Below, piece by piece: positions 13,714-37,054 of a stretch of DNA of 64,000 bases. Positions within the stretch are counted from its first letter, which is position 1; every line of letters starts with the position of its first letter. Source of the stretch: Calycina herbarum. Its lineage: Eukaryota > Ascomycota > Leotiomycetes > Helotiales > Pezizellaceae. Location of the stretch: NCBI GenBank assembly GCA_001414485.1, contig LLEY01000053.1:62001-126000 (forward strand). Reading direction: 5' to 3'. The position numbers and the translations under genes were made by a program. Under the pieces are notes generated by a model. That model was not told where the DNA came from. It was given only the letters and a program-made list of their open reading frames with translations, and made no database searches.

Positions 13714-15028
13714 ATGTTTTTCGCAATCTCAGCAGCTGCTTTGTTCTCTCTGGCAAATGGCCATGTTCTCCCTCGACAAACTGCAGGATATCATTATATG
13801 CCAGTTGATTTTGACTATGGCAGCGACTCAAGAGTAACTACCAACATCACTTTTGGTACTTCTCCTGACGCAAAGCCTTTTAAAGTCGTTATGGATACAG
13901 GAAGTGCAAACTTTTGGGTAAGCTTGATGCAAACTCTTTTTGCACACATCACTGACATTGAAATAGATTTGGGAACCAGGGGCAGTTGTTCACTGGGGAT
14001 CGCCATATCTTGGTGTTATTGGACCTTGTAACCAGACAGTCCCAACCAGATATAATCCCGGCAACTCATCAACAGCTGTCATCACTCAAAAGGCCTCTGG
14101 CTACGCCTATGCTGGCAATGCAAAGATCGTGTCCGGTTCTCATTACTCAAATGACACCATCACGGTTCCGGGAGGAAATGGGCCAATTTCAAATGTCCAA
14201 TTTGCATTAGAAAACAACTGTCTTCTACGCCAGCGCGATGATGGCAGTTGCTCCTCAATCACCTACGACTTAGGTATTCTAGGGCTTTCTCCCAATACCC
14301 CAAATACCGCCGGCCCATCCTTCCGCCAAAATCTTCTTGACGCTGGCCAAATTGGATCCAAGACCATGGTCATGTGGTTCAACAAGCATGTTGGTGCTCT
14401 CGGAAGACTCACCGGAGGAATCCTCTTCGGCGCGATCGACAAATCAAAATACACAGGACCTCTGGTTCGAGTACCTAATGCAATCGATCCCGCATCACAA
14501 ATTGGTTACTACGTTTCGAAGCCTTTAATCGCCTTCAACGGCAAAACTTTCAATGGAACCCAGGATACGAACTGTCTTGTTGACTCCGGTGCTCATGCAG
14601 ATTATCTTCCAATTTCATATGGGACCGAGGAAACCAGTTTCTTTTCCGAGACTGGATTGGTGGACTATAATGGTATTGTGGCATACAATGGGACATGCGA
14701 CTCGATTCCACAGGACCTCTCGATCGCGTATACTTTCGCTGGTGTTGACGAGAACCAAAACGTTACCATTGATGTTCCTTTTCGAAACTATGCTAGAGGG
14801 GCAATTGTGCTTGATCCCGGATGGCAAGGAGGCGATGTTTGTGTTCTCAATTTGGAAGTGGGAGGGTGTATGTTTGGAGCTCCATTCGCTTCTGGGGCTT
14901 TTATTGCGGTTGACGACGGCGACAACTCGATTGCATTTGCGCAGGGAGGTATTTCAGAAGAAGGATCGGGAGTTGACAGCGAGCAGTTAGTTGTAATTAG
15001 AGCTGGAGAGAGCTATGATACCAAATAG
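13714..15028 (+). CDS. Secreted A1-family aspartic protease
   Basis: Two exons, 13714-13917 and 13967-15028, with a 49-base intron (GTAAGC..ATAG) right after the first active site, give 421 residues. Residues 1-17 are a signal peptide (FFAISAAALFSLANG). The first catalytic Asp is D61 in VMDTGSANFW. The second is D274 in CLVDSGAH, with Ser in place of the usual Thr, as in many fungal A1 enzymes. The flap region and several Asn glycosylation sites (NIT, NQT, NSS, NDT, NGT) are present. A1 proteases cleave peptide bonds at acidic pH in the secretory route or outside the cell. There is no obvious long pro-segment and no GPI signal at the end. It stands alone, without a protease cluster. Confidence 0.88.
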
Positions 15029-16229: not shown

Positions 16230-19200
16230 CTAGGAGCCCTTGCTCGACCGAGCAGCCAACGCTCGGCTTTCGTCCAAGCCTGCCAAGTCTCCATGAGATA
16301 GTGTTTTTGTGATCTCCTTGTCAGGATTTGGAACATAAAGTAGCGGGTTTTCTGCGAGTTCTTGTTCCGTCTCTTCTTTGAGGGTGACTTCGACCACGGC
16401 TGGGCTTCTGGCAAGTCGTTTCATGGGCAACCCCTTTGTACAGTAATCTGGGACATTGTCGTCCATACATCTCAGATGAATTTTCTCAAACCTTTCTTTG
16501 AGCTGTCCGGTCTCCGATCTTAATTTCTCTTCAGAAATGATCACGAGCATCTCTCTCTCGATGATATCGAGTGTATCATGCAAAAATTGAGTACATCTGA
16601 CATTGTTATGCAGTTTATCAAAACACTGGCTGTGTATTAGTACTATATTCTTCTAGCGTTTCATTATTTTGTTCTTAACTCACATCTTTCACTTGCTTCT
16701 TCACCTGGGCAACATAAGGCTTCTTCTTCTGCTCTTTACCTTTCTGCTCTTCAGGCTCTTGACGTCCTTCTATCTCACACAGTGTAAAGAATTCCCTGCT
16801 TATTGTGCCATTCTTAGATGGGCTACTTCGTTCCTTCGAAAATTGTTCCAGAAGCTCGTAGCCACCAACCAGCCAAGTCACTATTTCAAAATACAGGCAT
16901 CCGAGTGTCCACACATCGTAGAGACGAGAAATTTTACCACCGTCGACGTCTCGCTCAGGGGCTCGATAACTGACCGGAACTTTAGGTACTTTGTGTTGAG
17001 GAATACTCGATCGACTAACTTTACTGTTGAAGGCTGTTAATCCCATGTCAGACAGCACGAGAATACCCAGTGGGTCGTCAGAAGATGAGAAAAGAAGAAT
17101 ATTGTCTGGCTTGATGTCACCATGTCTTCCGTACTTGTCGATTCCCTTTCCATGCAGATGTCCTGGTACATGAATAGTTGAGAGTGCAGACGTGAGACCA
17201 GAAAGTTGTTTTGAGACCCATTGAACGATCGTCCTACTCATATCTGGGTTCGGATTGACATCTTCCCAGTAGTAATCAAGAGTTCCATTTGCATACGGGA
17301 AAATGAAGTAGTATTTTTCTTCGAGAACAAAGGTCGCTAATAGAGTAACCAAGTGGCCATTAACTAGTCCGTTGAACCGCTGTAGTTGTTCGAGTTCATT
17401 TTGAAACTTGGCATTGTTGTTGAAATCCCGGTCATAAAGGCGTTTCACGGCAAAGAGTTCAGTGTTCAGACCAACCTGAGAGTGTATCAACATCATATAT
17501 TTAACACACAATTTCAACAAATTTTACTTACTTTTTGAATTATATCGCCGAATGAGTGAGTGTAGGGGTGTATTTTGACTTGAGACACAGATGCATAACC
17601 TCCATCGTGATGAGAGGGATAAGACACTGAGTGCGAAGATCTTTCCCTTGAACACCATGGCAATGTGGTTTTGTCATGGAAATAGTGAGTAGCGTTGAAA
17701 TTGAAGAAAGGTACAATGAACGCCGATTGCCGAGAAACAAAATAATCTTTCTTGTAAGGCTCTAACTCGTCGAAACATCCCAGTATTTCGCCTGGCTTCT
17801 TCTGGAAACAGATCTTTAGGTTTTTTCTACCTGAAGCTCTATTAATATAGACCGGCAAGTTTTGATCAGAGACGTGATCATTGATAAAACTAGAAATCTT
17901 GTCTTCTTCTTCCAATAACACAAGAAGCGCAAAAGTGCGGAGATATGTTTGTGTTTTTGTCTGTGTGAGTCCGTTTTGCGGTGGCTGGGCAAAATCGAGT
18001 TCAGTGAGACAGTCGTTCTCGGGTCTGATGCTGTCGAGATATTGGGACCCATTGGTTAACTTTTGACAACTCTCAAGTTTGGCTAAAACACGTCCTCTAG
18101 AAAGGATTTGAAGTAAGATTTTGTGTGGTAGGAACTCTCCCTTCTCCCCATCATCGACTATACTCTCCCGAAGTAGATCCTCAATTGGAGTCTTGGAATC
18201 CTCGAGACGATTTATAAACGTTCTTAGCTTTTCAAAGTATTCCTTCTCTGGGTATTCTTTGACAGGGAGATGTTTCCATCCAGAATCTATCTGCAATTCA
18301 TCTACATCTTGTTGGCCGACACCACCGCGGCTAATTTCATCAAAAATCGGAACACCAGTAGCAAGACTGCGGTCTGGCGGGTCTTGGAAAATAAGGTCTG
18401 CGGCCTCATCTCCAGGATCGAGCTCGCGGTCATCCTCGAGAAGTGTTGCTTCACTCTTGGAATTTTCAAACCAAGTGAGGGATAGAAGAGCAGCCGATTG
18501 TAGATGCAGAGCAATGTGACGTTGCAAATTGTCTTGTTCTTCATGCAGTGCTCCGTTTGAAGTAATAAGCTCCACGCTTGAATAATTGCAAAACGGGCAA
18601 TATTGAAACAAATCGAACTCAGCCCTAGCACTCCTCGTGGCCATTTCAGGGAGCTGGGATTCAGCAAATATCCCAGCATGATCCTTTTTCATGTGAAGAA
18701 TATACAAGTTTGGATTTTCAAATGACGAGGGGTCGTGTATAGGAGACAAACATTCCCAGTGTATAGGTGCATGTTCTGTTTGCATATGAGATATCCATTC
18801 CGAAAACACTCTGTAGGTTTTTTGTGGTGCGTGACACTCGTGAAATAGACATATGTAGGGGGCCAGATCCTTCATGACATGATCGCTACCAGCAGGCATT
18901 AGATTGCTGCTCAGTATGTATTGAACAAAACCAAGAAAATAGAGCAATGACTGACCTCCAGTGTTTGCCCGTCCCTTGTTTCTTTGGACACATGATAGAA
19001 CAATAGGGGCATTGGAACCACCCTGTTCCATCTACCTTAGGTTCAGCGGGAAAGTTCAATTGCGCAATTTGAGATGGAGTTCCGGGCAAGGCGCCTGAGG
19101 ATACTCTCGAAGTTTCGGTTCTTGGTGACTCCCCAACGTTCTTAGAGAGCTCGGAAGCTGATGTCTTTGATGTTGCATGTGGCCTGTTTGGTTGTGGCTC

Positions 19201-20120
19201 TAGTTCTGACTTTTGGGTTAAGAGTGGAGAAGCAGTTGACGTTATTGCCGGATGTCTCTTTCCGTGGGTTATACTTTTTCCAAGATTGGCTTTGGGAATA
19301 TGTCTTGACGCTAATTTCAGTTGGTGACTTCGGTAATAAGCAAGACGGTTGCGGCGCCTGGAGAGTGAAACAGCCAATCGATTCTGGAGAACTTCGTCTG
19401 TATGAGGGAACTTGATTTTTACAGCCTCGAGTGAAGCCCTGGAGTAGAGCTCGGTCAAGTTCTCTCCATCCGTCTCATCTCTGTCAACAAACTCTTCTGC
19501 CTTGAGATTGCGCTGGTGGGTTCTTGACTTCCGAACATGAGATGCCAATCTATTCAACCTACTTATCGCATCGACTACCTCCGAACGAGCCAACTCGACG
19601 GCAGCCGGAATTAATTCGTCTTTCTCCTGGTTTGCCGAGGACTCGATGGAGAGCGCGAGAGAGATAGTAGATAACGCTGGCGACGTAGCTTCAGTGGGCT
19701 CGCTTTCATCGGGCTCATTTTCATTGTTGGTAGCCTCGTCGGTTTCTCCCACTTCAATGTTTCCTACTGTTATCATAAGAAAGAGCAGTTAGAAAGTACC
19801 GCAGAGCTAGGGCTATGTTACCTACAATACGAAAGATTCTTGTCCAGGGCTTCCAATAGTTGCAATATCAACCGGCGAATCTCATCAAAATCCCGCAGGC
19901 GGTAATCAGCTGATACATGGCCTTCAGCAAAAACCCCAAGGTTGCTTGCCCAAATTTTGAACCTAGAGGTTTGTTTTTCTGACCACCAGGGATCGAATAT
20001 TTCATCGTTGTTCTTGTTTGAATTGGCCTCCTCTTCGAGGGAAACGCACAGACTAAACTTCCCCTCACAAACAGTTGTCCGGTCCCTAATAGTAAGCGTC
20101 GCAGAGGATGAAGTATCCAT
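16230..20120 (-). CDS. Zinc-finger/protein-kinase fusion, copy 1 of the mirror locus
   Basis: Five exons, 19826-20120, 18956-19766, 17532-18885, 16684-17475 and 16230-16625 (introns 59, 70, 56, 58 bases), give 1215 residues. Residues 1-100 are a helical N-terminus with SADYRLRDFDEIRRLILQLL. A Ser/Thr-rich linker follows. Residues 350-510 are a Cys/His module: CPYC.IMC, then HVMKDLAPYICLFHEC, W.SH...EH, CPFC and LQRHIALHL. I know this module from N-terminal parts of fungal NLR-like proteins. The kinase domain is C-terminal: AVK lysine K831, HGD catalytic D940 with K942 and N945, metal Asp D963 in SDMG (instead of DFG), RAPE and DVWTLGC. The Gly loop is weak (DGGYASV). It is head-to-head with the DUF7580 gene 165 bases away. 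Probably an active or weakly active Ser/Thr kinase; partner unknown. Confidence 0.8.
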
Positions 20121-20285
20121 GGTTTATCTTCAGTGTCTATCTTCAATACGTAGAAACGGATGCGAGGAATATTGGGTTTTATTTTTGCTGCGTCACATGA
20201 TGTAGGGACCTGCAGCTGAATACTCTTGCAGAGTGATCTATTTATTTCGCTGCTGAGGTTCATCAAGAACACAGCAATCTTTGCC
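20121..20285. promoter_or_regulatory. Bidirectional promoter of kinase copy 1 and DUF7580 copy 1
   Basis: Only 165 bases separate the two start codons, so both genes must share this region. It holds an E-box-like CACATG at 20194-20199, 74 bases from the kinase start. The partner pair has CACGTG at nearly the same distance. No clear TATA box. Confidence 0.5.
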
Positions 20286-22888
20286 ATGGCTTCGGGGTCG
20301 GCGCAACCGCCTATGGGCGATTTGCAATTGCTCGCCAGCATTATACCCAAGTTTCGTGAACTTGCTAAGTTTTACACTGGGGACGACAAGGCTGCACGCA
20401 AAGCAAGAGCTCAGCTACCAGATCGCGAACCTTTCTATACAAAACTTCATATGGAGTTCCGTGATCTGGACAACCTCCTCTCTGAATGGTGCTTTGGGAT
20501 CAGCATCTCCCCAAAGACAGAACGTGCGATAAAGCTGGCATTGAACGTCCTCGCAACCCGCTTCGTGAAGAGATCATTAATTGTAAGGCTCCGTAAATGC
20601 ACATTTGACTGGTGTTTTCTTTGGACTAATCGCAAATAGGTCCCGGAAAACTACCAACTACAACCCCCACAAGCTATTCTACGCGCCTTCGAACTACATA
20701 TAAATATGGCACAGGAGTCGTTGGGTCCGGCACAACTGCGAGAGCTTATAGTCCTGGCTGACGTAGGGGGAAAGGGAGACAAAGGAGACGTGGGCCGTCG
20801 AACCCGCCTTGTCAATGTGTTGAAGAACCTTTCTCGGGAACTTGAGCGGGCGAGAAGGGCAAGTTCTCGCCCGACTGTAGCCAAAACAAGAGCACACCAA
20901 CTGGCGGGAAGCAATTCTACAAAGTGGACTCGGCCTACAGAACCAATGGAAGTTTCCAACATTTCGCGCTCCTCATCAACGCATGTTAGGACGAACGCCG
21001 TACTACTTTATGAGCTCCTTAGTCAAAAATGGAATTGCGAGTGCCCCGAGTCTCATGTAGCATTCAACTTGCGGTTGGGAACTCGTCGAAAAAACAATCC
21101 CGAAACACTATTTAGAATACAGATGTCCCATAAATCGACCAGTTCAACAAGGTGGCAGGAAAGCGATATCAAGTTCGTGACAAAAACACAGTTATCATTA
21201 CATGCTCTCATCCGACACCATCTTATTGACTCCGTCCTAGGCAAGCGAAGACCTCGAAGGTTCATTTTGAGGCATCCAGCCACAATCCCCCTGCACTAAA
21301 AAGGGACAACTTGGAACGGCGGCCGGTCGAAAGTATTTGCGGTCTGGTCCACGAGTTCACCTCAAAACCCCATTGTCGATTGATGCTTCATGTTGACAAT
21401 GATAAGCTTTCCTGGTCCAGGGCAAGATTTACAAATGAGAAGTTATGGACGAGGGACCAAGTATTCTGGTGTGATTTTTTAAGACTTAGTGCTGCGACCC
21501 CTCTGAGCCAAGCCAAGAAACGGGACAAGTGCATCCTCCAACTCATTCTTGCCAATGGGTTTTTCAACTTTTATAAAGGTCCACGCCTGTTCCGAAATTA
21601 GGCCAAGACACAGATCTGCTTCTATCGGTCCAGCCAAGGATTTCTCTTGACGGATCCATACCTCTCGGTCCAATTCAGTCAAAATAGTGACTTTGACGAC
21701 AGCGAAAGGGACGAATTTCGAGTACACTCTTATCCTGGTATATTGACCTTAGGAATCTTGCTCTTGGAAATCGAATTAGGCCGAAGTATTGAAAGTTTAA
21801 GGCCAAATGATAGTCCCAACAACAGCGAAAATGTCTATCACGTTGATGCAGATTATCCCATTGCCCACGCCATGTTGGACGAGTGTCGTGGTGAATCTCC
21901 CGACGACTTCGTGAAAGCTGTGGAAGCCTGCTTAGACGATATGACATTTGCAGACAAGTTCGGCCAAAACTGCTCTTTCGATGATTCTATATTCCGACAA
22001 AGCATTTTCGAACATATTGTGGAGCCGTTAGAAGCGGCTCTTAGAACCATATATCCAACTTATGATGAAGCCCTTGATGAAGCGCCTTCTACCTCGGGTA
22101 GCACTTTCCGCCCCGTGAGTGGCTTGCCATTCAACCCCCCTCGGAATATACCCCCTACCGTTAACTTAGGTTTTATGGACATACATGAATCGCAAACAGC
22201 ACAAATTGGAGAAGACTCAGAAAGCCTAGCAGGTGACACCTCGGAAGAAATCAGCATCACTGAAGGATCTTTAACAGACAAACTCGCTTCTCCGCAGTTG
22301 CCTGGACCGTCCAGTAGTATTAGAAGGATCCCCCCCGGTTCTTCCGAGAAAGTGAGTATCTACAAAAGTGATTTCAGTACCAGTGCTAATATCAAGAAAA
22401 GGCCGACACATGGAACAGAGACATATTGCTTTACATCGGTTTCGAAAATATAGATAACCAATGGAAACCGGCTACTGCCCAGTTTGATACAGGGGCGCCT
22501 GGCGGCTATATATCTTCTGAAATGATCAACAGACTAGGCTTGGGTGCGTACAAGAAACAAACCAAAAGAATAGTCGGACTCTCTGTGGATGGAAAGCATG
22601 TGAAGTCACAACACAAAGTCTCGATCCACGCGAAAGGAGTTATGGATCATGACCATCACCTGTATAACTTCCAAGTTATCAAAGGTCTCCCAGTTAATAT
22701 CATCTTCGGGAGGGCAACGATCAACAAACAAAAATTTGCAATTCCTAATCCGGAGGCCGAACTTTGCCGACAACAACCCGTACAATGTACAGGTAACTAC
22801 ATGCTCCTCTTCAAGTCCTGCTGCCGGTGCTTTCTAATACTCTGCAGTTATTCAGCTTGACGAGTACGACTCGGACGATGTGACCTAG
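20286..22888 (+). pseudogene. DUF7580-retropepsin fusion, copy 1, with one in-frame TAG
   Basis: Exons 20286-20582, 20640-21190, 21241-22351, 22402-22792 and 22848-22888 keep one frame of 797 codons, except for TAG at 21599-21601 (codon 403). In copy 2 the aligned residue is Trp (LLKSWDKSHICFY), so TGG changed to TAG, a RIP-type G-to-A. No intron removes it without breaking frame. Residues 1-280 are helical; about 230-550 match DUF7580 as I know it (LLYELLSQKWNCEC, RRKNNPE, QLILANG, HSYPGILTLGILLLEIELG), a domain of fungal HeLo/NLR-type proteins. Residues about 660-770 are a retropepsin fold: catalytic D682 in AQFDTGAPGGYIS, and a VNIIFGR.TI stretch as in the second half of such domains. The gene is dead, read through, or truncated to a 402-residue N-terminal product. 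Confidence 0.75.
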
Positions 22889-23564
22889 ATTTCAGCATCC
22901 GCATGGGTACATAAGAACACCACCAGAATAGCAGCAAATCTTAAATATTGTCGATTTACTTTCCGAGAAGTTATGGAATACAACCCCCTGAAACTTTTTA
23001 TCCAAAGTGTCGACAAGCTTGAATGGATCAACTTTCCGGCTGTTCATGATCTGATCCCTCTTGGATTGTGCTAGGGAGGCAACGAGATCGTAATATCTTG
23101 AGCTAGGCGCGAACCAGGAATCCCTCAAACATTTTGTGATACCGAGAACTAATAGTTACCTACCTCATGTTTCCCCTATTCGAGCTATGTCTTGTTCCCC
23201 CAATATACAAGCGACTTTTGCTTGTTGCAGGGAAGGTTACTGGTTTCCTTGCTGGCTTTCAGAATATTGCTTTCAATGTTGATTTCAAATGAAATTCACC
23301 CAGCCGGTCACTGCGGCTTGAGAGAGTTCGCGCGGCAGTGATAGTAGAAGAACAAGATTATTTTGCATGTACATCGTCTGCTAGTTTCAATTTGCTGGCC
23401 ATCAGAATCGGAAGAAAGCAACAGTGAGATGAGGGGATGGCTGCTTGAATAGCTTGAATGTATCAGCTGACAGAGGGTACGTATTTCCTGTATTTACAGG
23501 TGCTCATGATGAAGCAAACAAGTTATAGTTTTCTGATGAAACTGATTGAATTGCCTCCAAGGAA
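22889..23564. other. Gap between converging genes of the locus
   Basis: About 675 bases between the stops of DUF7580 copy 1 and the small retropepsin-like gene. A 78-codon minus-strand open frame at 22892-23128 shows no known features. Nothing else seen. Confidence 0.5.
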
Positions 23565-24244
23565 CTAGTTTCTAGCAGAACCACTACCACTTTGCCCTGG
23601 GTTCCCATTGTTGTCTTTATTCGCGAGGGCTTCGGCTTTCTCTCTTAACATCTCCTTGTGCGTCTTGCTCTGTTTTTTGGAATCTTCCTTCCTCTCTTTA
23701 GTCTTCTTTTTTGTTTCTACTTGATTAATTAGCATGTAGAATAAAAGTAGAAGCAAAGTATGCGAACCTTTTGTTTGTTCATCAGCTGCAAAAACGAGAA
23801 TGGGATCCGAATCGTCAAATATAGTCTCATCTTTTGACAAAATATCGTGCCCAATGATGAGATGGCATGACTCTGGAATCGAGGCCGTAATGTTGAATTC
23901 CTTGAAGTGTGTTGTTACACCATTCGCCTTCTGCCACGTTACTTTCAGTACACCTGTTGATTCAAGTTCCACGCCGCGAAAAGTGGCAACGGCGGGTTTT
24001 GTTTTGACATTATGCCGGCTCTGTATAAGTTCTCGAAGCTCCTGTGAGATCCAACTGTTCGAACTTGAATCATCAATGAATGCTGGAACTCCCAATTTTC
24101 CGTTGGAATTATCGAAGACGTAAATTTCCCGAATGGTCGTAGCCGCGTCTGGCTGTTCAATATTCTGTTGTTGCTTCTCGTCAGTATGGATTGGGGATGA
24201 GATACGAAGATAAGGCTAGGTACCTGCAGTGTATCGGTCGCCAT
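23565..24244 (-). CDS. Small retropepsin-like protein with altered catalytic triad
   Basis: Exons 24224-24244 and 23565-24164 (59-base intron GTACC..ACAG) give 206 residues from the ATG at 24244. The core resembles the retropepsin domains of the flanking DUF7580 genes: VPAFIDDSSSNSWIS aligns with AIFDTGTLGNYIS, so catalytic D38 stays but the Thr-Gly become Asp-Ser. Further on, SCHLIIGHDIL matches the LPVNVIFGRKTI region. Loss of the Gly of DTG makes proteolysis unlikely; a binding or inhibitory role is possible. The tail is a Lys/Glu-rich coil (ETKKKTKERKEDSKKQSKTHKE) ending in a Gly/Ser-rich stretch. A 48-base segment at 23720-23767 has GT..AG ends and a GCTAAT branch site and is a multiple of three, so it may be an intron or encode a hydrophobic LLLLLFYMLI insert. 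Confidence 0.65.
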
Positions 24245-24579
24245 GCTATCTCTCGGCACTTGCGGTGATTTTACTTTTTCCAAATGCTTCCCTGCAACTT
24301 CCACCGATCAAAGATACTGGTGACGGGAACATGTTTTTATAACCCATAATAACCAATTTTTGTGCGACGAACTCTCACCGAGAAGAGGGCGGAGCATGCC
24401 TTGGAAAAATCGTCTTTGGGCGACTTTCATGCATTGCGGGCGCCTCATTTCAGCCCAGGGCCTGCATATCGCTGCCTAACAGCCTTCTTCAAATCGTATA
24501 CACCTGGCAATCGGCCCCCAGCTTTGTTGAGTGGAACTCTTGAGCAAATACATCACCCAAAGCGTCCGTGGGTTTCAAA
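24245..24579. promoter_or_regulatory. Divergent promoter of the central pair
   Basis: The small retropepsin-like gene (-) and the DUF6594 gene (+) start 335 bases apart, pointing away from each other, so this stretch must hold both promoters. It is the third head-to-head arrangement in a row. No specific factor site is convincing. Confidence 0.4.
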
Positions 24580-25578
24580 ATGGAGGGATATGCCAAGATT
24601 GCGAACCTTATGACCGAGGATCCTGGTCTTGCAATTTTCCGACGATTTGGAGCTTTGAATATGCAAAACCTGTTATACCTCCAAGCTGAGCTCGTTCAAC
24701 TAGAAGATGAATTGAAGGAGCAATCACAGCTTGATCATAGTAATGCTCAAGACAAATTTCGATACTCATTCTCAAGCAGCTGGATCGCAATGAAACTATC
24801 CGCCAAGGAAGAAGGATCTGGTCAACAATGGGAGAAGGTTTGCGAGATACAGGAGAAATTGCACAAGTATTGTATGTGTGCTGCCAGTTTTTGTGTATTC
24901 TTTCAGTTAATGGCATGATAGATCAACATCTCTTCCTCTCAACCGCTATTTCGAAAGCAAATCCGCCGAATAGGCATAATTTGAAATTCTTCCGAGAGTG
25001 GTTTGAGCGTGCTGATATGGGGAATCAACCTCTGCTTGATGATGACAAACTCGTATGGAATGGAGAACACGATAAAGATCTCATTGCGCTTGGTCAACCC
25101 CCTGGGGAGGATGTTGTCTCGAGGTGGTTCATCGACAATATGATACCACTACTCCACAGAAAATTCAGAAGTGGTGTGTCAGTAGGTAGAAACTCCCAGT
25201 CTCAAGATAAGATACTGAACCACCACATAGCAACCAGATTTAGAAGCGGTGGGATCACCATACTCGTGTTACTCCGATCGCCGCCTCCTTCGTTACATCA
25301 ATATCCTGAGCACCGTTATTTCGTCACTCTTCCCTGTTCTCGCAATGGTTGTTTTATCCTTCGTCCACAACACACAAGGACAGCTGTGTGTAATTGCTGC
25401 GTTTACTTCGATATTTGCATTTTGCCTCGCCTCAATCACAGAAGGACGAAGAATTGAGATTTTTGCTGCGACCTCGACGTGAGTGCTGCGGTTTTATATG
25501 TTCGGAAGTACAGGCTGATATTGATCCAGATTTGCGGCGGTTTTGGTGGTTTTTCTGGGCACAGCTACATCTGCTTAG
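24580..25578 (+). CDS. DUF6594 membrane protein
   Basis: Exons 24580-24871, 24922-25173, 25238-25478 and 25530-25578 (introns 50, 64, 51 bases) give 277 residues. The N-terminus EGYAKIANLMTEDPGLAIFRRFGALNMQNLLYLQAEL is the signature of the fungal DUF6594 family (GYP.IA..m...p..aifRRF..LN..NLLylQAEL). Next come PPNRHNLKF...W and ERADMGNQPLL, also typical. The C-terminal third has three hydrophobic helices (ILSTVISSLFPVLAMVVLSF; CVIAAFTSIFAFCLASI; FAAVLVVFLGTATSA) with the RRIEIFAATSTFAAV motif between the last two. That order is usual for the family. The membrane location is clear; the biochemical function of DUF6594 is not known to me. Its place at the centre of the mirror locus suggests it could be the membrane-acting component. 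Confidence 0.85.
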
Positions 25579-25634
25579 TGCCTTTCAATCTCAGTGACTT
25601 GACCAGTTAGCTTAGCTATCAATAAAGAATACTG

Positions 25635-28038
25635 TTACAGCTTACCTCCACATGATCTGCGCTGGCCACATAGTTCAGAGTCTGGGTTAGGCACTGCAAA
25701 TTTTAGTTCCTCGATTGTTTTTCTTCCAAAAATAACATTGACAGGCAAATTGATAATGACGACAAATTTATATGGGTGAGTGTTATAATCCCAGTCACCC
25801 TTTGCACGTAGCGCGATTTGCCGATCTGGTATCACCGTTGTACCGTTGAATGCCACACCCTTTCTGGTTTCGGCGGGTCCCAATGGTATCATGTCAGATC
25901 CCAACCCTAATCGATCAACCATTTCGAGTGAAATATAGTTCCCAAGTGTTCCCGTATCAAAAATTGCAATGGCAGGTTTCCAATGTTGATCCCAATCAGG
26001 AGCGAATCCCACATACAGATGAATATTTCGATGCCATTCCTCAGAGTTGCTTCCAGTAATCAAAGGAGTACTTGACTGCCCCGCATGCCCATTGGGAATC
26101 CTTTGAATGCTACTTTGCTTGGGTGCCGGAGTACTGTGTGGCCGAACTTGAGTTTCTACAGAGTTAACCTGTTCATGGCGAGTGACCCCAGGTGCACTGC
26201 GAGATTTGGGTAGTACTTCATTCTGGGTCGTCAGAAATGAACGGGTAGAGTGCTTTAGGCTTTGGCTTTCCGACGGCGGAGACCAATCGTCAACTCGTTC
26301 AATAGAAATATCAAAAACATTTTTGAGTGTGTTTTCCAATGGACGGACAATCATTTCGAGGGTCTTTTGTTGAAGAAAAGGATCGCCGAACGAATGTCGT
26401 CTATGAGACTTCTCGTTGAGTATGTCCGGATACAAACACGCTTTCACGGCTTTTTCGAAATGTACAGAGCTGTTACCTCTACATTCTCCAAGCATTTCGC
26501 ACGCAACATACCAATCTGTATCAGGATTGAGACCTTGAGTACTCGGTGCACCATGATGTGGTCGTTGGCGTTCAATTGGCCGACCCAGCTCGATTTCCAG
26601 GAGGAGAATTCCGAGTGCTAAAATTCCAGGATACGGATGCATTCGATTTTGGTCCTCGTCTTCGGAATCCACTTCTTTCAAAGGTTTGCATTGCGTAGAG
26701 AGATATGGTTTTGTCAAATCAAGAACAGCTTCGCCTCTAGCTTGGTAAAAACAGATGTGTGACTTGTCCCAAGATTTGAGTAGCCAAGGGCCTCGATAAC
26801 AGTGCAACAATGCATTCGCGAGAATTACCTGGAGGATCAACTTCTCTCTGATTTTTATTTCGTCGGGTATAGTGGTGCGCAGTTCCAGAAACTGTTCGAG
26901 AGATAGTAAGACTTTGTCCTCTCTCCAGGACTGAGGGTTGATGTAGCTTGGACTTAAATGCCAAAGTTTGTCGTCTTTGACAAGAAGATTTAATTGGCTT
27001 GGTTCCCTGATACTATGAACAAGCCTGCAGATACTATCAACTTCGACCCTCGGCTCTTCTGGTGCGGTGGATGAAAGCGGCGGTTTAGCTGTTGCTGATA
27101 TCCTTCGAAGATTCAATTAGATGTCTAGCAGTGGATCATGGTAAGGAAGCATACCTTGCTTTTGGCGCAAACCGAACATGGCTCTCCTGCCATTTTCCGG
27201 AGGATGAGCAGGAGAACAGCATTTTGAAGGAAGTATCGGGGTTGTTCTTGCGATGTGTAGCTAGTCGTAAGTTGACAGCTGTGTGGGGAGGGTGACCTTC
27301 ACAATTCCAACCCTGTTTGAGAAGCTCATAAAGGAATGTAATGTGGTCCCTGATATTCTGCGACGGGGAAGAACATGAATCACTTGCCCGTGCATTCAGG
27401 TCCCGGACCCGCCGCTCAACATTGCTCAATCGATCGACTCCAGATAATCCAGTCAAACTACGCATTAGCAGACCATTTAATTTTGCTAATCGTTTCACGA
27501 AACGATCGCGATTCTCCTTCTCATCATCGGCCAGGTATATCAGTTGACGCAGTTCTTCCAATCCCAAGCCCCCGTCATGGTTATTCGGTATTCGTTTCAA
27601 ATTATCATCTCGTTCTCGTAGAAGGCGTAGGTTGGGGTATTTCACCAGCGGGTGGAAATTGGAAGTCTACAAAATTCTGTGTTAGATTGCTTTTATGAGG
27701 AACGTAAAGCTTCTTACCGGTCTTTTGACGAAACGACTCTCAAGAACATCCAACGCGCGCGTCAAGGTTTGCAGGTCGAAATCGACTTTAGGGTTCCATG
27801 AAGAGAGGTTATTACCAAGGCAGAAGAGTTCAGTATGCAGGGCTAGAAAGAAGCTAATGAGAGAGCCTCGCTTTTCTTGGGCGGTGTGTTTGTTGAAGGT
27901 GCAAAGTTTGAGGAATACAGGTATAACGCTTCCCAGAAGCTGCATAAAATCTTTGAATTGTTGGGACATAGCAAAATAATACTGGATTTGTGATGAATCG
28001 ATCACCCAGCCTTCGGACCACGAAAGCTCAACAGTCAT
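25635..28038 (-). CDS. DUF7580-retropepsin fusion, copy 2 (intact)
   Basis: Exons 27718-28038, 27155-27666 and 25635-27102 (introns 51 and 52 bases) give 766 residues. The ATG at 28038 is first; an ATG at 27969 matches copy 1 better. The first two intron positions and phases equal those of copy 1; the two later introns of copy 1 are absent. The last intron of copy 1 may have a counterpart here (GGAG/GTAAGC near the end), so the C-terminal few residues are uncertain. Layout: helical N-terminus, DUF7580 (LYELLKQGWNCEG, RKNNPDTSF, LILQVILANALLHCYRGPWLLKSWDK, HPYPGILALGILLLEIELG), linker, retropepsin domain with catalytic D660 in AIFDTGTLGNYIS and LPVNVIFGRKTI. It has one DTG per chain, so a protease would need to dimerise. 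Head-to-head with kinase copy 2 at 113 bases. Confidence 0.78.
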
Positions 28039-28151
28039 TGCAGGTTCAGCTCACGGGAAAAAAGCAACCCTGCGACACACACACGTGATCATCCAACTCC
28101 CTTCTTCAGCTTCCAGGCTTTTCAAATTAGAAGTCCGGGACATCATTCACA
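28039..28151. promoter_or_regulatory. Bidirectional promoter of DUF7580 copy 2 and kinase copy 2
   Basis: Only 113 bases lie between the two ATGs. A palindromic CACGTG at 28082-28087 is 65 bases from the kinase start, mirroring the CACATG of the copy 1 pair. A CT-rich patch follows at about 28095-28115. Shared control of both genes is inferred from the short distance. Confidence 0.5.
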
Positions 28152-31100
28152 ATGGATACCCCCTTTGCTGGAGATTCAACTCTTACTTATTGCGCCAACG
28201 CCTGCCGCGAATTGTTTTACCGATGCCTATCTAACAATATCTTGTGTGCCTATCAACACGGCTGGCCTGAAAACCAGCTTGCGAGATTTGACATCTGGGG
28301 GGATAATCTGGGCCTCCACAGGCAGGGCCATGCCTCTGCGGACTATCGACTCCGCAATCACAACGAAGTTCGCAGACTACTTTTGCAGTTGCTAGGTACA
28401 TTGCATGAGAAACTTTCTTACAGTATGAATATACTGGCTCATTTCAGAATATAGCATTCTGCTAACTATCAAAACAGTTCATCAGAATGCGACAGAAGAG
28501 ATAGGTGGCGATATTGCTGCTGTGAGCACCGAAGATAACTCCCCACATTTGTCGACTGTGTCTTTTGTATTGTCTTCCGCGTCTTCATCCAGCTTGGACG
28601 ATGATCAGTGGTTGTCTGTTAGTGTAAAAGATGCTTGCTCTGAGGTCAAGGATATTATCAATCGGTTGAACAAATTGACCCTGTCTATCCGAAGGCCTTA
28701 CAAGTGGGATCAACCAACGGAGGCGGACTTTTATGTCGTCGAAGATGGGGATGGAAGAAACTTGACTGAATTCTACACACGTATCTCAACCTCAATCATA
28801 TGCCGAACTTTCCCAAGCGCACATAAAACTTTGCAACTACGCCTGATAAATTCTCTAGTTGCACGATACAATCGCCTTGCCTATTGCCGAAGGCAGAAAA
28901 ACCCTACATCAGAAGAGGACTCTCACAGCTTTCCTCGCGCCAGCCTTCCCCGGACATCTTCTCAGACCCCAGAGCTACTCGACAAGTTGGCCTTGTTTGA
29001 CACGGAATCCATAGATTTATCCGCACATCTGAAGTTAGAGGATATGGAGTTTCCTTCAGAACCTAGAGTTGCGGTGGAGGGATCTTTTACATGCCCTTAT
29101 TGTTTTATTCCATGTCCGCCGGAAGAGGCTAGAGGGGATTCTTGGAGGTAAGATATGCGTACACAAAACCAATCTTCCTGTTTTGGTTATTTGGCTTTTG
29201 TACTAACCTACTCATTCTCGTTTATAGGAATCATGTCATGGAGGATCTCGCTGCATATATTTGTTTGTTCCCCGACTGCACGAAACCCGATCAATCTTTT
29301 CAAACCGTGGGCGACTGGATTTCGCATATTCAAGATGAACATACCTCTGTTTGCTGGGATTGTTTATCGCCTAGCCATGACCCCGTTACTTTCGGACAGG
29401 AAGAGAAGTTTATCGACCACGTGAAACAAAGTCACCAAAACGCTTTCACCGATTCTCAGCTTCCGGGAATTGCAGCAATGTCAGCTAGACCCAACTACAA
29501 TCTTTTTCAATCGTGTCCACTGTGTGATTTTAGTAAGAGCACAACGCTTGATGCAGACCCAGTTTCACCCGGACACCAGGACGATTTGCAGATGCATATT
29601 ATAAACCATTTACGCTCCATCGCTTTACTATCTATCTATTGGCTTGAACATCCAGTTGAGACTCAAGATAGAACTTCATCTCAGGGCATAGTGTTGCCAA
29701 AGGTTGCCGCACTAGTCAAAGATAAGAATGATAAAGTGTTCGAGGGAGAAAGCGTGGAACGAAAATTATTCTTTGAAGAACTAAAACTAGGGTCTTCCAG
29801 CCTTGGGGATCATAAAAAAGGTTCATACTTTAAAAACTCTTTGGATTATGAGAGAGTATGTGACCCTTATTTGTGTTGTACTCAGCTAATCGTGCCAGGG
29901 TCCTGATTTGCGACAACAGCCTGCTAGAAACCCCCATCTAGTGGTCAGTTGGAACCCCAATCTATCTGTACAGTCTGACTTTCAAGGACTTGGTGTATCC
30001 CTTCCCTCGAAATCGCAAACAACACAAAGCAGCATTATCGAAGATGGTGGATATTCAAGTTACCTTGCAGACAATCGAACTTCAAGCCACCGACTTTCTC
30101 TGGCATCCTCCAGAGCCGAATTAGTCTCTTACTCGGACGGCGGATTCGCAAATACGAAGGATAATGTCGTTTCTGGGCAACTCGATACTACTGGAGATGA
30201 GGATGTTTTGAAGGAGGATGAGGACCTAGGAGAGTCAATACGCGTGGCTTTGCAACCCTCTCAGTCGGAGGGAAAACAGCAGAAATTTCTGCCTAATGAT
30301 TCTTTGGACAGGATCGTCTCTTGGCAACGAGTTCGGCATGAGCTCAGCCGCCACAGTATAGGGCCAAGCAAAGATCTGGACGTACTGGCGCACAAAATAT
30401 GGGAGGTAGCGTCACCCCCTTCTCCTTCAAAGACACGGCCCAAAGAAACGACAAGGAGGAAGATTTTTGCAATTTTGGGTCTGATGGAAAAACTTGAGGA
30501 CATTGTGGATTTCATTGATGCTCAGCTGTATGATTGCGACCTTCCTTTTTTGCTATCTGAAGGACCACGGCGAGGATCGCTACAAATGGACCGAAGATCA
30601 AAAGGTGGCCAGCATCCCATCGAGTTGTTTAGGAACTGGAAAAACTTTGAGCTTGAATCCTTCAACGCTTATCAGTGGCAGCTCACTGCACCATACTTTT
30701 CTTTGAGCCTTGAGAAAACTCGAAAACCGCAACATTATGTTCTGCAAAACGAGACAATTCTTCCGTTTATTGAAGAGGGGGAAGGTAACGAGCACCGTGC
30801 TGAAGGCGGTTACAGTGATGTTTGGAGGATTAAAATTCACCCAGCCCATCATAACTGGTGTGGTGGCCTGGTAAGCACAACTCGGCGCTGGCGTTGCTTA
30901 TTTCTCGGGCTAGTTCTTTTTGGTTGCCTGTCTAATATAACATATATAACAGGCTCCCCTTGATCGAATTCCTTCGTATGCCATCAAACGACTACGGCAT
31001 AATAACGTTATAGCTTTCTGCAATGAGGTATCTAATTTGAAGAGATTTAGCGGAAAAAGCCATGAGCACCTCATCAAACTTCTAGCAACATTCCTATGGC

Positions 31101-32514
31101 GTGATCAATTCTACCTTATTTTTCCGTGGGCAGATGGAAATTTGCTCGACTTTTGGAAATTGCACCCCCAACCGCCTGATGCTACAAAGGATCCCAGGAT
31201 GGCTCGATGGCTCTCTGAACAATGTCTTGGGCTTGTTGATGGACTGAAATCAATCCACAACGGAGACAACCAAAAAAGCAAGTCGGGTAATTATATACAC
31301 GGAAGACACGGTGACCTCAAACCTGAGAATATACTCTGGTTTAAGGACCGTACAGATGAGCGCTCTTTCGGTACGTTGAAGATTTCGGATTTTGGGCTCG
31401 CACGGTTTCATAGAACACAGTCAAATACCATGTTCAAAGCAGTCGCAATCTCACGGACCTATCGCCCACCAGAGTATGATATTGCTCACATGGTTTCTCA
31501 GAGCTTCGACATATGGACTCTAGGCTGTCTTCTGCTTGAATTTGTGACCTGGTATCTGTTTGGCTGGGAAGAAATTGAATCATTTTCCATGGAACGAGCT
31601 GCGGAGGATCGCCGGGAACTGCGCGAGGATGTTTTCTTTCACTCTATGCAAATTATGGCAGATGACGGGGTTTTAACTCTGGGTGCTAAGGCTAAACAGT
31701 CTGTCGTCGATGTAAGTCATTCAAAATTCACCCTTGCAGGGCAAACTTAACAAATTGATAGGAGTTTCAAAAGCTATATGAACACGAACGTTGTTCTGAA
31801 TTCATATTTGATCTACTCGAATATATCGAGAAAAGTCTCCTTCGAATAGGACCTCGTAAAAGAGCGAATTGCGAAAAGATTTTCCAGCAATTCACAAAGA
31901 TCCATAGGGAATGCTTGGAGGATCAGAGCTATTGCATTGATCGCTTACAGGCAGTACCAAAGCGCTCTGGGACAGATCTTTCTGAACTGTCGGCGTCCAC
32001 CCTCAACCTCGGCCCTAACATCCAAGACGCATTACGAAAAGTCAATCTCCCCCAACACACTGGACCTTTAGTAGACTGGAAAGGGAAGCTTCCAGAAAAG
32101 GCAACTTCAACCCCCCCAACGACACAACCAAGACCACTTGCGTCTATCTACAGGACAGCGACTGTACAGTCCAGTCACGGTAGCTCTGGAAACTATTGTC
32201 CCACACCGCAGTCCCCAAGCAGGAAGGTCGTCCATTTCACGGCCCATGGACCAGTTGAGGTTGTAGGACTCAAGAGCGAAATAGATACTCTACCACAAGA
32301 ACTAGAGATGCCTAAAATAAAATCCCATTCCTCAAATACCGATTGGCCCGAGGATGAGAGTAGCACGGTGGTTGGCAGCAGCAGTGGTAATCCAGAGTTG
32401 GCCTCAGAACAACAGACTAGTAAGTTGTTACCTGAACTCTCAGCGAAAAATAATAAGAAACACAAAGGGGTTAGAACTCGTTTAGCTCGGATATTTAGGA
32501 GAAGCCTAAGATAG
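28152..32514 (+). CDS. Zinc-finger/protein-kinase fusion, copy 2 of the mirror locus
   Basis: Six exons, 28152-28422, 28478-29147, 29228-29855, 29899-30870, 30953-31711 and 31762-32514, give 1350 residues. Architecture as in copy 1: N-terminal SADYRLRNHNEVRRLLLQLL, Ser-rich linker, Cys/His module (CPYC.IPC, NHVMEDLAAYICLFPDC, W.SHIQDEH, CWDC, CPLC, MHIINHL), then a kinase with all key residues: EGGYSDVW loop, AIK K859, HGD D968 with K970 and N973, DFG D993, RPPE and DIWTLGC. This copy looks fully competent. It has one more intron in the middle region than copy 1 (29856-29898), while the splice phases after SY, after the zinc-finger W and before the last exon agree. The extra C-terminal part is disordered and ends in a strongly basic helix (RTRLARIFRRSLR). 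The stop lies a few bases before the RIP block. Confidence 0.83.
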
Positions 32515-33582
32515 AATTACTAGGTACATTTATATATAATTTATTTTTATACTTTTTAAAAATGTCTAAGATTAAAAATATAAAATCTTATTCTAATTAA
32601 GATATAAATAGATTTAATAGTTAAGTATATTTCTTCGTTATACTATATAACTTATATAACGCTAATCTAATCTTATATTTCTAGTACTAATATAACTAAA
32701 TAATTAAATTATTATCTTATACTCTAAACTATACTAAAATAGATAATAATATAAGAATTAAATAATAATTTACCTATTATCTTATTATAAAGAGCACGTA
32801 GTATACTGAATAGAATAGTATATAAAACTTGAATAAAGACTAGCTAGGCCGAATAGCCGCTACCTAAGTGACTCGGCTAGAGGTCCGAGTCCTCGGCTAG
32901 TTATATAACAGCCTTAACTGTTACACTTATATATAAAAAGCTCTACTAAAAATATTATTAATTTAGTATAAGTATATAAGCTAAGTTTCTCTCTACTTCT
33001 ACTACTTCTACTACGACTTTTATACTCTTTTATTCTTTCTTTTACTTAATATATCTTCTCTAGAATAGCGTAAGATAAATACTAAGTCTATATAAAGATT
33101 TAAGTTTAGTGAATAAGTATAATAGTACGAAACGGATACTACTATAAAAGAGGTATATAGGAGTACGTTCGATAGAATAACATATATGAATACTAGGCTC
33201 TAATACGAAGGAAAAGACTAAATTAGCCTTTCTAATAGAGAGAGAGAGAGTATCTATATATAAGAGGTCGGATAATAATAAGGTCCGAACCTGACATTCC
33301 TAAGACTCGAACACGTATTCTATCTGATATATAACCCTTCTGGTATATAAACTATTATATTCCTAAACCTAGCCCGTATCTCTTCTAGCACGTAACCTTA
33401 GCTATTACGTAACCTGGACAATTCCTAATAACTGGCTATTATAATAAGCTCGGTTATTCTTTAGAAATTAGAATTCGTATTATTAGATTTAGTTAAATAG
33501 TTCTTATACTTAGAGAACTCTTCTCTTCTTATAGATAATCTAATTATATACTATTATATATTATCTACTATCTATATATTTA
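32515..33582. repeat. AT-rich, RIP-decayed repeat DNA, unclassified
   Basis: About 1.07 kb of very AT-rich sequence, dense in TA steps and stop codons in all frames, beginning directly behind the kinase stop. GC-richer islands (32850-32900; 33350-33440) look like remains of older elements, but I cannot assign a family. No gene seen. Confidence 0.7.
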
Positions 33583-34206
33583 ACGTGATCTATTACCGAG
33601 CTGCGTATATTACCGAGCTATGTACTTTTACTAACTTCTACTACTTTAAAATATAATAAATCAACTATAATAATAGATAAAACTTATTACTCTTCGAATT
33701 CTAATAAGCTAGATATATCTATAAGTTCTTAATAAGTTCGCGTATTATAACTAGTCTTTCTATAAGTATTATAACGTCGCGTAGTTGAAATCTCTTTCTT
33801 ATAATTTACTTTTCTAAAGTACTTATCGTGTTATATCTGCTTATTTACTTTATCTTAAGCTATAATATTATATATATCCTCTATAGTAAGTGTACCTCCT
33901 TAATAGATATAATTCTTTTTAGCTCTATAACGTTTAGAAAGTACCTTATTTACTGCTTAAAGTATACGTAGCTTAGTATTAACAAGAGTTAATTTATAAG
34001 CTAAACGCTCTATATCTTACTATCGCTTATTCTCGATTACTTAGTTAAACTATCTTACTCTTACTACGTTGATTAGTATAAGTAATAACTATTCTAAGAT
34101 AGATTTAACCTATTATAAAGTTAGTCTTATTAAAGTTATAGAAATCGCTATCTACTATACTATATTTCGCTTATATATTCTCTACTAGTCGAAACCACGT
34201 ACTAAT

Positions 34207-34438
34207 TATCACGATCTATATCTGAAGACAAAGGCACAAGAGTATATGTATATATATTTAAGAATTTAAAGCTATAGTTCTAAGAACGAGGGAATACGGA
34301 ATATATACTCTACGAAAAAGAGGTATTCCTACTAACTATAAAGAGCTTTTAATCTCGTTATAAATCCGTCTAAGCGTTGCAGCTCTGACGGTTACGTATA
34401 GGACCGAGAATCACGTGTTACAGACTAGCGCCGTAACA
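34207..34438 (-). repeat. LTR (3' LTR of the Gypsy element)
   Basis: 232 bases, the same length as the partner at 40080-40311. The differences I can see between the two are nearly all C/T or G/A, with this copy richer in T and A. That is RIP rather than neutral drift, so LTR divergence should not be used as a clock. Confidence 0.88.
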
Positions 34439-36409
34439 TTACCCCTCTTTTTAGAAAAAGCTTATCTATAAGCTTTATGTTATAACTGAATCGTCTATTA
34501 GATGATTGTAATCGTCTATTCTATCCTCCTACGCTCGTATCTAGCTTTGTAAAGCCCTTAGCAGACCAGCGCGGGCTAGATTAGCAAGGTGAAAATCGTG
34601 TAATTTGTATAGGTAATACTTAAAATTCGAGGCTAGATACTACTATAGATTAGGGTTATAGCCTAACTATTAAACCTTATATTAGAGCTTTCTACAAACT
34701 GCTTTTATAGCTAAGACTTCTTCTACTTCCTACTCTTCTTAATCTATAACCTATATTAGCAGGGGTGGTTCGTTTACCTATCTAAGTAACGGATCTATAG
34801 CAGCCTTACAGAGCAGTGACAGGTGGAATACAGGGTATATACAGAAGTGGTCTAGCAGTTCGAGCTAGAAAGAGTATCCTTTACAGGCTGTAATCTAGAA
34901 CGGACCCTCGTTTTGTCTATCTAGCTTATAGCTTAGCTAGTCTGTCTTCTAATTACAAGTCGATACCTAAACAAAGTCGTCTACGTTAAAGTCTACCGCT
35001 CTTTAAATCCGGTTCGCAGACCTTATATAACAGTCTTGTGCTTTACTAACTAATTCCTTTGCTACGGTCTAAGTATTGTACATTCTCTGTACGAGTGCCT
35101 CTATATCGGTCTAGTTAAGCTATTCGTAGACTGTTACAGATTTATCTAGACGGTTCTAATCGAAGGACGTAGTAGCTACGTATCTATTAATTACTTTAAA
35201 GAGCGAGAGCCTACCTAGACTCTTGTGTAGAAGCGTAAGCTAAGCGTAGTCTAGAATAGGGACAAGTTCGCTCTAGTTGTCCTAATAGTAACTAATAAAA
35301 GGCTATAGGCGTTGATTAATCTATTAGTTTATAATTTCGGTTTATCTATCAGTTTATAAGTAGAAAGTAGTAGATAGCTTAAGCTTTATACTAAGGATTC
35401 TATAGAATTTAGACTAGAAAGAAGAAACAAACTATAGTCTATAGTCTAAAACAATGCTTTATAGATAGCCGTAGGTTTAATAGATCTATATAACGTATAT
35501 TCGAGCTATATCTCGAGCTATAACTGTCTTTAGATAGAGGATCGAGACCGATTACTTAGTTAGGCGATCTATAACTACCTATAAGGTATTATAACCTTGT
35601 TTATTAGTAGGGAAAGACTTATAGTCTATAGTAATATACTACTAGGGACGTTCTAGAACTGGTAATAGGTATAAAAACCTAGGTTTACAGTTACGAGGAA
35701 CCGTAGTACGTCGACAGTCTCTGTAGTTACTAATATAGGTTTCTACAGACGTCTGTAAACCTTTCTACTAGTATCTACAGGCAAGGATAGCTACCGTCTT
35801 TGTCTGTCTAGGGTAAGCCGTAGATACTTATACGTAAGCTTCACAGATTAGGTCCGTCCGTAAGGTACCTTAATTAGGAACTACGAGTCTCTTTTACTAA
35901 AGAAGTAAGCCGTTCTCTATTATCTAGTTTTAGTACTCGTGGGTAGCTTTCGTTCGGTTATCTTCTAAGTCTGAAGAGTTATAGTTAGTAGTAAGTAACT
36001 AGTCAACAAGGTTAAGCAAGGGTTCTAAGGTAACTAGGGCTAACGTTATAGGAGGTTCTAATCGAGTAGTAATATATAGATTTAACTAATCAGACGTAAG
36101 TAAGGTTTGTTTTCTTATAAACGCTTTTAGGTTATTTTATAGGTTAACGTCTTAGTCTTAGCGTATTAGCGTATTCGTTTTCTTATTCTACTTACTAGAT
36201 TAAAACATAATTATAAAATAGAACTCTAATAGAAACTCTACTTATCTCGCTTACTACTAGTTTAAGGTTTTAGAGGTTATAAAGTACTCTAAAGCCTTGT
36301 AATCGGTGAAGACCTTAATCTAGGAGCTAGTCTAAGTAAGATCCGCTTGCTATTGTCTAAAAGAGTGTATAATAGCTAATATCTTCTTATCGTAGATTTA
36401 GTAGTTTAG

Positions 36410-37054
36410 CTTAGCAGGGTTTATCGTCTTTAAGAAGTAGCTTACAAGTCTCTATAGTTCGGTTTCAGATATACGTTATAATATTATAGCTATAACTACT
36501 CCGTTAGAAGTGTTAGTCTTAACTATAGTCTCTAAATCGGCTGTAAAGTAGTATAAGAGAGAGGTAGTAACTAAGGCTTCTTTTAACGTGTTAAAAGCCT
36601 TCTTATATTCTAAGTTAAACTTAAATAGTACTTCCTTACTTATAAGATGGTTTAGTAGACGAGTAATCTGTCTATAATCCTGAATAAAACGTTAGTAGAA
36701 GTTGTAAAAACCTAAGAAGGACTAGATACTCTTAATAGTACTAGGATATTTCTAGGAAACGATTACTAAGATCTTCTCTAGGTTAACTTTGATTCTATCT
36801 ATAGAGATAATAAAACTAAGGTACTTTATATAGGTAACGTAGAACTCTGTCTTCTTAATATCCACTTATAGCCTAGCTTTATAAAGCTGTTCTAAGACCT
36901 TATAGACGTGTTTAACGTGTTTAAGCTTATTATTAGAGTATATAAGAATGTTGTTAAGGTAAGCTATATAAAAGTTATTGAGATATTTTATAAGAACGTT
37001 ATTTATATACCTCTGGTACGTAGTAGGACCGTTAGTTAAGCTAAAAGGCAACAC
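36410..37054 (-). pseudogene. Reverse transcriptase/RNase H relic of the Gypsy element
   Basis: On the minus strand the sequence reads PFSLTNGPTTYQRYINNVL, then YIAYLNNILIYS: the polymerase motif YLDD has become YLNN. Further on come SFLGFYNFY.RFI and AFNTLKEALVTTSLLYYF, followed by an RNase H start with the first Asp changed (TNTSNGVV for TDASDGVV). Every change fits G-to-A on the coding strand. In-frame stops occur where Trp is expected. Confidence 0.85.

What the first reader, a model, noticed from the sequence alone, without database searches (positions are those of the whole stretch)
16230..32514. Mirror-image locus of three head-to-head gene pairs: kinase / DUF7580-retropepsin / retropepsin-like + DUF6594 / DUF7580-retropepsin / kinase
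Seen: six genes alternate strands (-,+,-,+,-,+). The outer two pairs are paralogous in inverted order and share architecture, intron positions and phases, yet the proteins differ strongly, so the pair has been kept together for a long time rather than duplicated recently. Known: the zinc-finger module, DUF7580 and DUF6594 are all families I associate with fungal NLR/HET-type non-self recognition. Inference: kinase and DUF7580-protease form a co-expressed signalling unit, with the DUF6594 membrane protein as a possible effector and the small retropepsin-like protein as a regulator. I know of no described system with this composition.
Basis: partly seen in the sequence, partly recalled or inferred. 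Interest (0 to 1): 0.92.

Follow-up and report, generated by a model that had tools for sequence, protein, structure and literature searches.

The report
Paired fungal sensor and pseudokinase genes
This stretch of a fungal genome holds two mirror-image copies of a two-gene module that recurs many times in the same genome, back to back each time: a zinc-finger sensor-type protein beside a dead-kinase protein, a set-up that looks like a self/non-self alarm and whose parts are swapped from copy to copy.

Summary
The layout is real: six genes on alternating strands, the outer pairs inverted paralogues. The main result lies outside the window. The recurrent unit is not kinase + retropepsin but a head-to-head pair of a zinc-finger (ZnF) N-module gene and a DUF7580 gene: 16 of 22 detected ZnF genes lie beside one of 24 DUF7580 genes, all 16 divergent; 0.12 expected. 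In other copies read, the ZnF module carries NACHT-WD40, NACHT-ankyrin, ankyrin or BAG parts, and one DUF7580 partner carries a subtilisin. DUF7580 resembles kinases but lacks catalytic motifs: a likely pseudokinase, on a low-confidence model. Best reading: a fungal non-self-recognition or cell-death module in which an NLR-like sensor (here a ZnF kinase) controls a pseudokinase effector (here with an aspartic-protease-like tail). Pairing is shown in this one genome; function, phosphorylation and cell death are inferred. DUF6594 and R are probably passengers. New variant of a known kind.

The parts
16230..20120 (-). K1: ZnF N-module (res. 1 to about 510) + protein kinase, 1215 aa, 5 exons, no internal stop
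   Evidence: Pkinase 55 bits; FAVK 828, HGDIKPDNI 938, SDMG 962
20121..20285 (.). 165-bp shared intergenic region K1/D1
   Evidence: its local similarity score to the D2/K2 spacer was reached by 2 of 200 shuffles
20286..22888 (+). D1: N-terminal part + DUF7580 + retropepsin-like tail, broken by in-frame TAG at 21599-21601
   Evidence: two pieces scanned apart
23565..24244 (-). R: small protein (about 194 aa; start and introns uncertain), no family; probable passenger
24580..25578 (+). E: DUF6594 protein, 282 aa, 4 exons; probable passenger
   Evidence: (198.7 bits)
25575..27969 (-). D2: N-terminal part + DUF7580 likely pseudokinase (res. 185-516) + retropepsin-like tail with DTG, 747 aa, 4 exons, no internal stop
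   Evidence: (169.6 bits)
27970..28151 (.). 182-bp shared intergenic region D2/K2
28152..32514 (+). K2: ZnF N-module + protein kinase, 1350 aa, 6 exons, no internal stop
   Evidence: Pkinase 76 bits; YAIK 856, HGDLKPENI 966, SDFG 992

Best explanation
The locus is two inverted copies of a recurrent two-gene fungal module. One gene makes a sensor/activator with a fixed N-terminal zinc-finger module and an exchangeable C-terminal part (NACHT-WD40, NACHT-ankyrin, ankyrin, BAG or, here, a protein kinase with intact catalytic motifs). The other, read from the same spacer in the opposite direction, makes a DUF7580 pseudokinase with an exchangeable tail (none seen, subtilisin or, here, a retropepsin-like aspartic protease domain). 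Proposed working: on a non-self or damage cue the sensor engages the pseudokinase of its own partner; in this copy the kinase of K probably phosphorylates it; that change lets the tail proteases dimerise and cut a target, or frees the helical N-terminus, ending in growth arrest or cell death. Shown: pairing, orientation, module swapping, kinase motifs in K, missing catalytic motifs in DUF7580. Inferred: physical interaction, phosphorylation, protease activity, cell death, recognition role.
Confidence: 0.55

Rival explanations
1. The pairs are conserved because of a shared bidirectional promoter or co-regulation only; ZnF proteins act as transcription or stress regulators and DUF7580 proteins as housekeeping pseudokinases, without recognition or cell death.
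For: C2H2 fingers can bind DNA (general knowledge); short spacers of 165 and 182 bp; no recognition phenotype known; a BAG domain in one partner fits stress control.
Against: NACHT-WD40 with near-identical repeats, NACHT-ANK and ANK partners, tail swapping and 16 diverged pairs in one genome look like immune-type turnover, not housekeeping.
Confidence: 0.2
2. One reading: kinase + DUF7580-protease signal unit, DUF6594 membrane effector, R as regulator.
For: All lie within 16 kb, and the coding ends of E and D2 overlap by 4 bp.
Against: DUF6594 matches about 48 places and none of the others lies within 20 kb of a DUF7580 gene; R occurs once in the genome and has no family.
Confidence: 0.08
3. 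A chance arrangement or a simple recent inverted duplication.
For: Among the 11 pairs compared in this genome, K1/K2 and D1/D2 are nearest relatives in the ZnF and DUF7580 domains (46% and 44%).
Against: Linkage and orientation recur 16 times against 0.12 expected; the proteins differ by more than half.
Confidence: 0.03
4. A decaying island: the module was functional elsewhere, but here D1 is dead and the locus borders a strongly mutated AT-rich repeat, so it is a relic.
For: TAG in D1; repeat-induced-point-mutation-like composition at 32-40 kb.
Against: K1, D2 and K2 are open over 12 modelled introns and K1/K2 keep their catalytic motifs; composition of 16-32 kb is like most of the window.
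Confidence: 0.14

Closest known systems
DUF7580-Peptidase_S8 proteins of other fungi (P0002-P0006, P0008)
   Same: Same N-terminus and DUF7580; 37-43% identical to D2 for P0002-P0006 and 26% for P0008; P0006 lacks the start
   Different: Tail is a subtilisin, not a DTG retropepsin-like domain; genomic neighbours not known here
Gasdermin/protease two-gene clusters (HET-Q1/HET-Q2)
   Same: Adjacent genes, one a protease-bearing sensor (PMC10197012 section 15, read whole)
   Different: No gasdermin among the six genes; the protease-like tail is fused to a pseudokinase
NWD2/HET-S receptor-effector pair
   Same: NLR gene next to its death effector (PMC9815663 passages; PMC3321046 and PMC4344463 seen in a listing)
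   Different: ZnF module at the front of the sensor; no HeLo domain found in D2; amyloid motifs were not searched for
RIPK3/MLKL necroptosis relay and fungal HELL-kinase/pseudokinase proteins
   Same: Active kinase plus a pseudokinase partner (PMC12881547 section 18 and passages)
   Different: No 4-helix bundle detected; extra protease-like tail; phosphorylation not shown
Head-to-head NLR pairs of plants
   Same: Divergent sensor/helper genes, often with a shared promoter (PMC12258605 passages)
   Different: Here at most one partner is NLR-like; that paper found head-to-head NLR pairs rare in Sordariales (13 of 225 two-NLR clusters)

Membership tests
ZnF/DUF7580 head-to-head pair (defined here) | ZnF N-module gene and DUF7580 gene adjacent and divergent | tested here: met
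   both window pairs and 14 others
Fungal NLR | NACHT or NB-ARC domain | tested here: not met
   none in K1/K2 at E<=1; present in partners at C40 and C59
Fungal NLR | C-terminal ANK, WD40 or TPR repeats | tested here: not met
   none in K1/K2 at E<=1
Protein kinase (K1, K2) | kinase domain with Lys, HxD and DxG motifs | tested here: met
Pseudokinase (DUF7580) | kinase-like fold | tested here: inconclusive
Pseudokinase (DUF7580) | catalytic motifs absent | tested here: met
   0 of 18 sequences, some partial
MLKL/HeLo-type executioner | N-terminal 4-helix bundle or HeLo domain | tested here: inconclusive
   no Pfam hit; helices predicted at low confidence in a relative
Retropepsin-like protease (D1, D2) | D-T/S-G active site | tested here: met
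   FDTG in both
Retropepsin-like protease (D1, D2) | profile match over cut-off | tested here: not met
   14.7-23.6 bits against 24.3
Retropepsin-like protease (R) | D-T/S-G active site and profile match | tested here: not met
   DDS; no protease family
Gasdermin/protease cluster | gasdermin gene adjacent | tested here: not met
   no gasdermin among the six genes; the rest of the window was not scanned
Heterokaryon incompatibility locus | polymorphism and death on fusion of unlike strains | not testable with these tools
   one genome only

The most novel reading that the evidence does not exclude
The locus encodes a fungal kinase-to-pseudokinase relay analogous to RIPK3-MLKL in which the sensing part of an NLR has been replaced by an active kinase and the executioner carries an aspartic protease, one instance of a general swap-in/swap-out two-gene immune platform (ZnF sensor / DUF7580 pseudokinase) present in about 16 copies in this genome.
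Probability: 0.25. Interest if true: 0.9.

Novelty: new variant of a known kind. Interest (0 to 1): 0.72.

Why it matters
If right, fungi have a head-to-head sensor/pseudokinase module of a kind not mentioned in the passages I read of a 2025 survey of Sordariales NLRs, which looked for NLR-NLR pairs and found them rare (PMC12258605). It gives a likely role to an uncharacterised Pfam family (DUF7580) and to an N-terminal zinc-finger module, links kinase/pseudokinase signalling to fungal NLR-like receptors, and offers a ready natural series of part swaps (NACHT-WD40, NACHT-ANK, kinase; subtilisin, retropepsin-like, none) for testing how receptor and effector recognise each other.

Tried and rejected
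Considered and rejected: kinase/retropepsin as defining parts (no K-family kinase match in the ten other loci read; the capped kinase list shows none within 10 kb of the six pairs known by coordinates only); DUF6594 and R as parts of the module. HeLo-type N-terminus: no sequence support. Both structure models came out poor; the first fold search showed only subtilisin matches to the tail of a relative in its 50 rows shown of 980. D2 tail against the PDB by sequence: nothing at E<=10. DUF7580-S8 alignment in viral contigs: no relative. Locus-tag adjacency in other fungi: the D relatives PAC_10213 and G7Y89_g12760 and the ZnF or kinase relatives PAC_08149 and G7Y89_g3744 do not carry neighbouring numbers, which does not support pairing of these particular hits. 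One origin of the retropepsin-like tail in D1 and D2: neither supported nor rejected (AU p 0.072). Kinase parts of K1/K2 as sisters: rejected at p 0.010 with a long-branch caveat; the test was run after the tree was seen. Six of the 16 pairs (C369, C56, C266, C317, C4, C83) are known by coordinates only; C83 has a 7.1-kb gap and is the least sure.
Full report
WHAT IS THERE. The window lies at contig C329:62001-126000 of a 68.8-Mb assembly. I rebuilt six gene models by hand from open frames and canonical splice sites. K1 and K2 begin with a module holding C2H2-type zinc-finger motifs (ZnF N-module; no Pfam family over E 1 in it; named from the spaced Cys/His) and continue into protein kinase domains (55 and 76 bits) that keep the catalytic motifs. 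D2 has DUF7580 (169.6 bits) and a C-terminal domain with DTG, weakly like aspartyl proteases (PF13650, 14.7 bits, under the 24.3 cut-off; D1 tail 20.6-23.6 bits). E is a DUF6594 protein (198.7 bits). R has no family. D1 has an in-frame TAG at 21599-21601 within DUF7580. Whether that is a null allele, a pseudogene or a sequence error I cannot tell.

PARALOGY. K1 and K2 are 36% identical over the N-module and 30% over the kinase half; the D1 pieces are 32% and 38% identical to D2. Intron sites agree in 4 of 4 (K1 in K2) and 3 of 4 (D1 in D2), with one extra intron each in K2 and D1. Among 11 pairs compared in this genome the window copies are each other's nearest relatives in ZnF and DUF7580 domains (46% and 44%; next 34% and 31%). 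Two results complicate this. With relatives from other fungi added, D2 stands outside a group of D1 and five S8-tailed proteins (support 81/84, not starred), while D1+D2 as one clade is not rejected (AU p 0.072). And the kinase domain of K2 is nearer to another kinase gene of the genome at C347 (50%) than to K1 (39%), and a K1+K2 clade is rejected (AU p 0.010) with K1 on a very long branch. Of the kinase relatives from the protein search, three also match the ZnF profile (P0012, P0032, P0061), and K1 groups with one of them, P0032, and with P0040 (92/87). So a ZnF-kinase fusion exists in other fungi, and the kinase part may have its own history.

THE CONSERVED UNIT. DUF7580 has 25 matches, 24 genes after merging exons. 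I read the surroundings of ten other DUF7580 genes. None had a K-family kinase match, but eight had a gene with the ZnF N-module, all divergent; a ninth, C140, has a weak one (22 bits), also divergent; C212 has none. Two coordinate searches with ZnF segments gave 22 ZnF genes in the genome. Sixteen lie beside a DUF7580 gene, all sixteen divergent, 15 with 2.1-3.4 kb between the matched domains and C83 with 7.1 kb. Expected within 8 kb by chance 0.12; Poisson tail 1e-28. The two queries came from paired genes, which could favour paired genes; a query from another fungus (P0088) found 11 genes, 7 paired, 5 of 9 without the window. Unpaired: 6 of 22 ZnF genes and 8 of 24 DUF7580 genes (C140 among the eight). 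Counts from this tool are lower bounds.

PART SWAPPING. ZnF partners: C40 NACHT (116 bits) + WD40 with 11 comparable repeats, mean pairwise identity 71%; C59 NACHT (38 bits) + ankyrin; C34 and C68 ankyrin; C229 BAG; in C326, C146, C246 and C140 nothing clear among the frames scanned. DUF7580 partners: C40 subtilisin; in C59, C326, C229, C146, C34 and C140 the open frame ends within about 10 codons of the DUF7580 match, in C246 within 60, though a tail in a later exon is not excluded; C68 not judged. In the protein search D2 had eight hits: its own exon, six DUF7580-S8 proteins and one DUF7580 protein without protease. P0088, a Phialocephala NACHT-ankyrin protein, carries most of the N-module and is 60% identical to C40 in the ZnF segment, although C40 has WD40: a repeat swap. 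Near-identical repeats in NLRs are linked to fungal non-self recognition (title and abstract start of PMC12222747 in the listing; otherwise general knowledge).

CO-DIVERSIFICATION. Distances of ZnF and DUF7580 domains correlate over 11 pairs (r 0.76, p 5e-5). Without the window pairs and C140, r 0.69, p 0.013; with C40 and C59 also removed, r 0.28, p 0.24 on six pairs. So partners match at subfamily level; finer matching is unproven.

WHAT DOES NOT BELONG. DUF6594 has 86 matches, which I merged by hand to about 48 places; apart from the window none is within 20 kb of a DUF7580 gene. R matches only itself in the genome.

HOW IT PROBABLY WORKS. See best explanation. The strongest inference is context: a fixed N-module fronting NACHT-repeat receptors, paired with a second gene, is the pattern of fungal receptor/effector clusters (PMC10197012: section 15 read whole, other passages; PMC9815663 and PMC12258605: passages; PMC12881547: passages and section 18). 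The next is the kinase/pseudokinase pairing and its apparent fused versions. The protease role rests on a DTG motif, sub-threshold profile scores and the subtilisin tails of close relatives, a swap between unrelated protease types.

LITERATURE. No paper in the library holds DUF7580 or DUF6594. Searches for retropepsin-like + fungal + NLR, and for subtilisin/gene-pair, HeLo-like/pseudokinase, acuF/zinc finger/NACHT, head-to-head/NLR and protease/incompatibility combinations listed nothing that by title, abstract start or the passages read describes this pair. Only open-licence papers are held, so this is weak evidence of novelty.

LIMITS. One genome; no other fungal genome could be scanned with neighbours; six pairs by coordinates only; no expression data; organism unnamed (the species of the nearest D relatives point to Helotiales, inference from general knowledge).

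Noticed in passing
window 32500-40000: AT-rich block (GC 0.32-0.40 in 2-kb steps) with TpA/ApT 1.7-2.0 and (CpA+TpG)/(ApC+GpT) 0.32-0.38, the mark of repeat-induced point mutation, directly after K2.
   Followed up: partly
window 21599-21601: In-frame TAG in D1; the neighbourhood shows no repeat-induced-mutation composition.
   Followed up: partly
L047:3282-8414 (C40): ZnF-NACHT-WD40 gene with near-identical WD repeats, head to head with a DUF7580-subtilisin gene.
   Followed up: partly
G000 C319:228993-231221 and C325:313837-315954: Kinase and DUF7580 matches in one frame: apparent kinase-pseudokinase fusions; DNA not read.
   Followed up: partly
G000 C376, C340, C190, C257, C18, C46: Six ZnF-module genes without a detected DUF7580 match on their contigs; partner unknown.
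   Followed up: no
G000, about 48 places: Large dispersed DUF6594 family (86 matches), some members close together (e.g. C199, C112, C38).
   Followed up: no
window 13600-15028: Open frames resembling a secreted pepsin-type aspartic protease beside K1 (motif read by eye, not scanned).
   Followed up: no
G000 C59:32814-33965: Transposase-like frames (HTH_Tnp_Tc3_2, DDE_3) just after the C59 DUF7580 gene.
   Followed up: no
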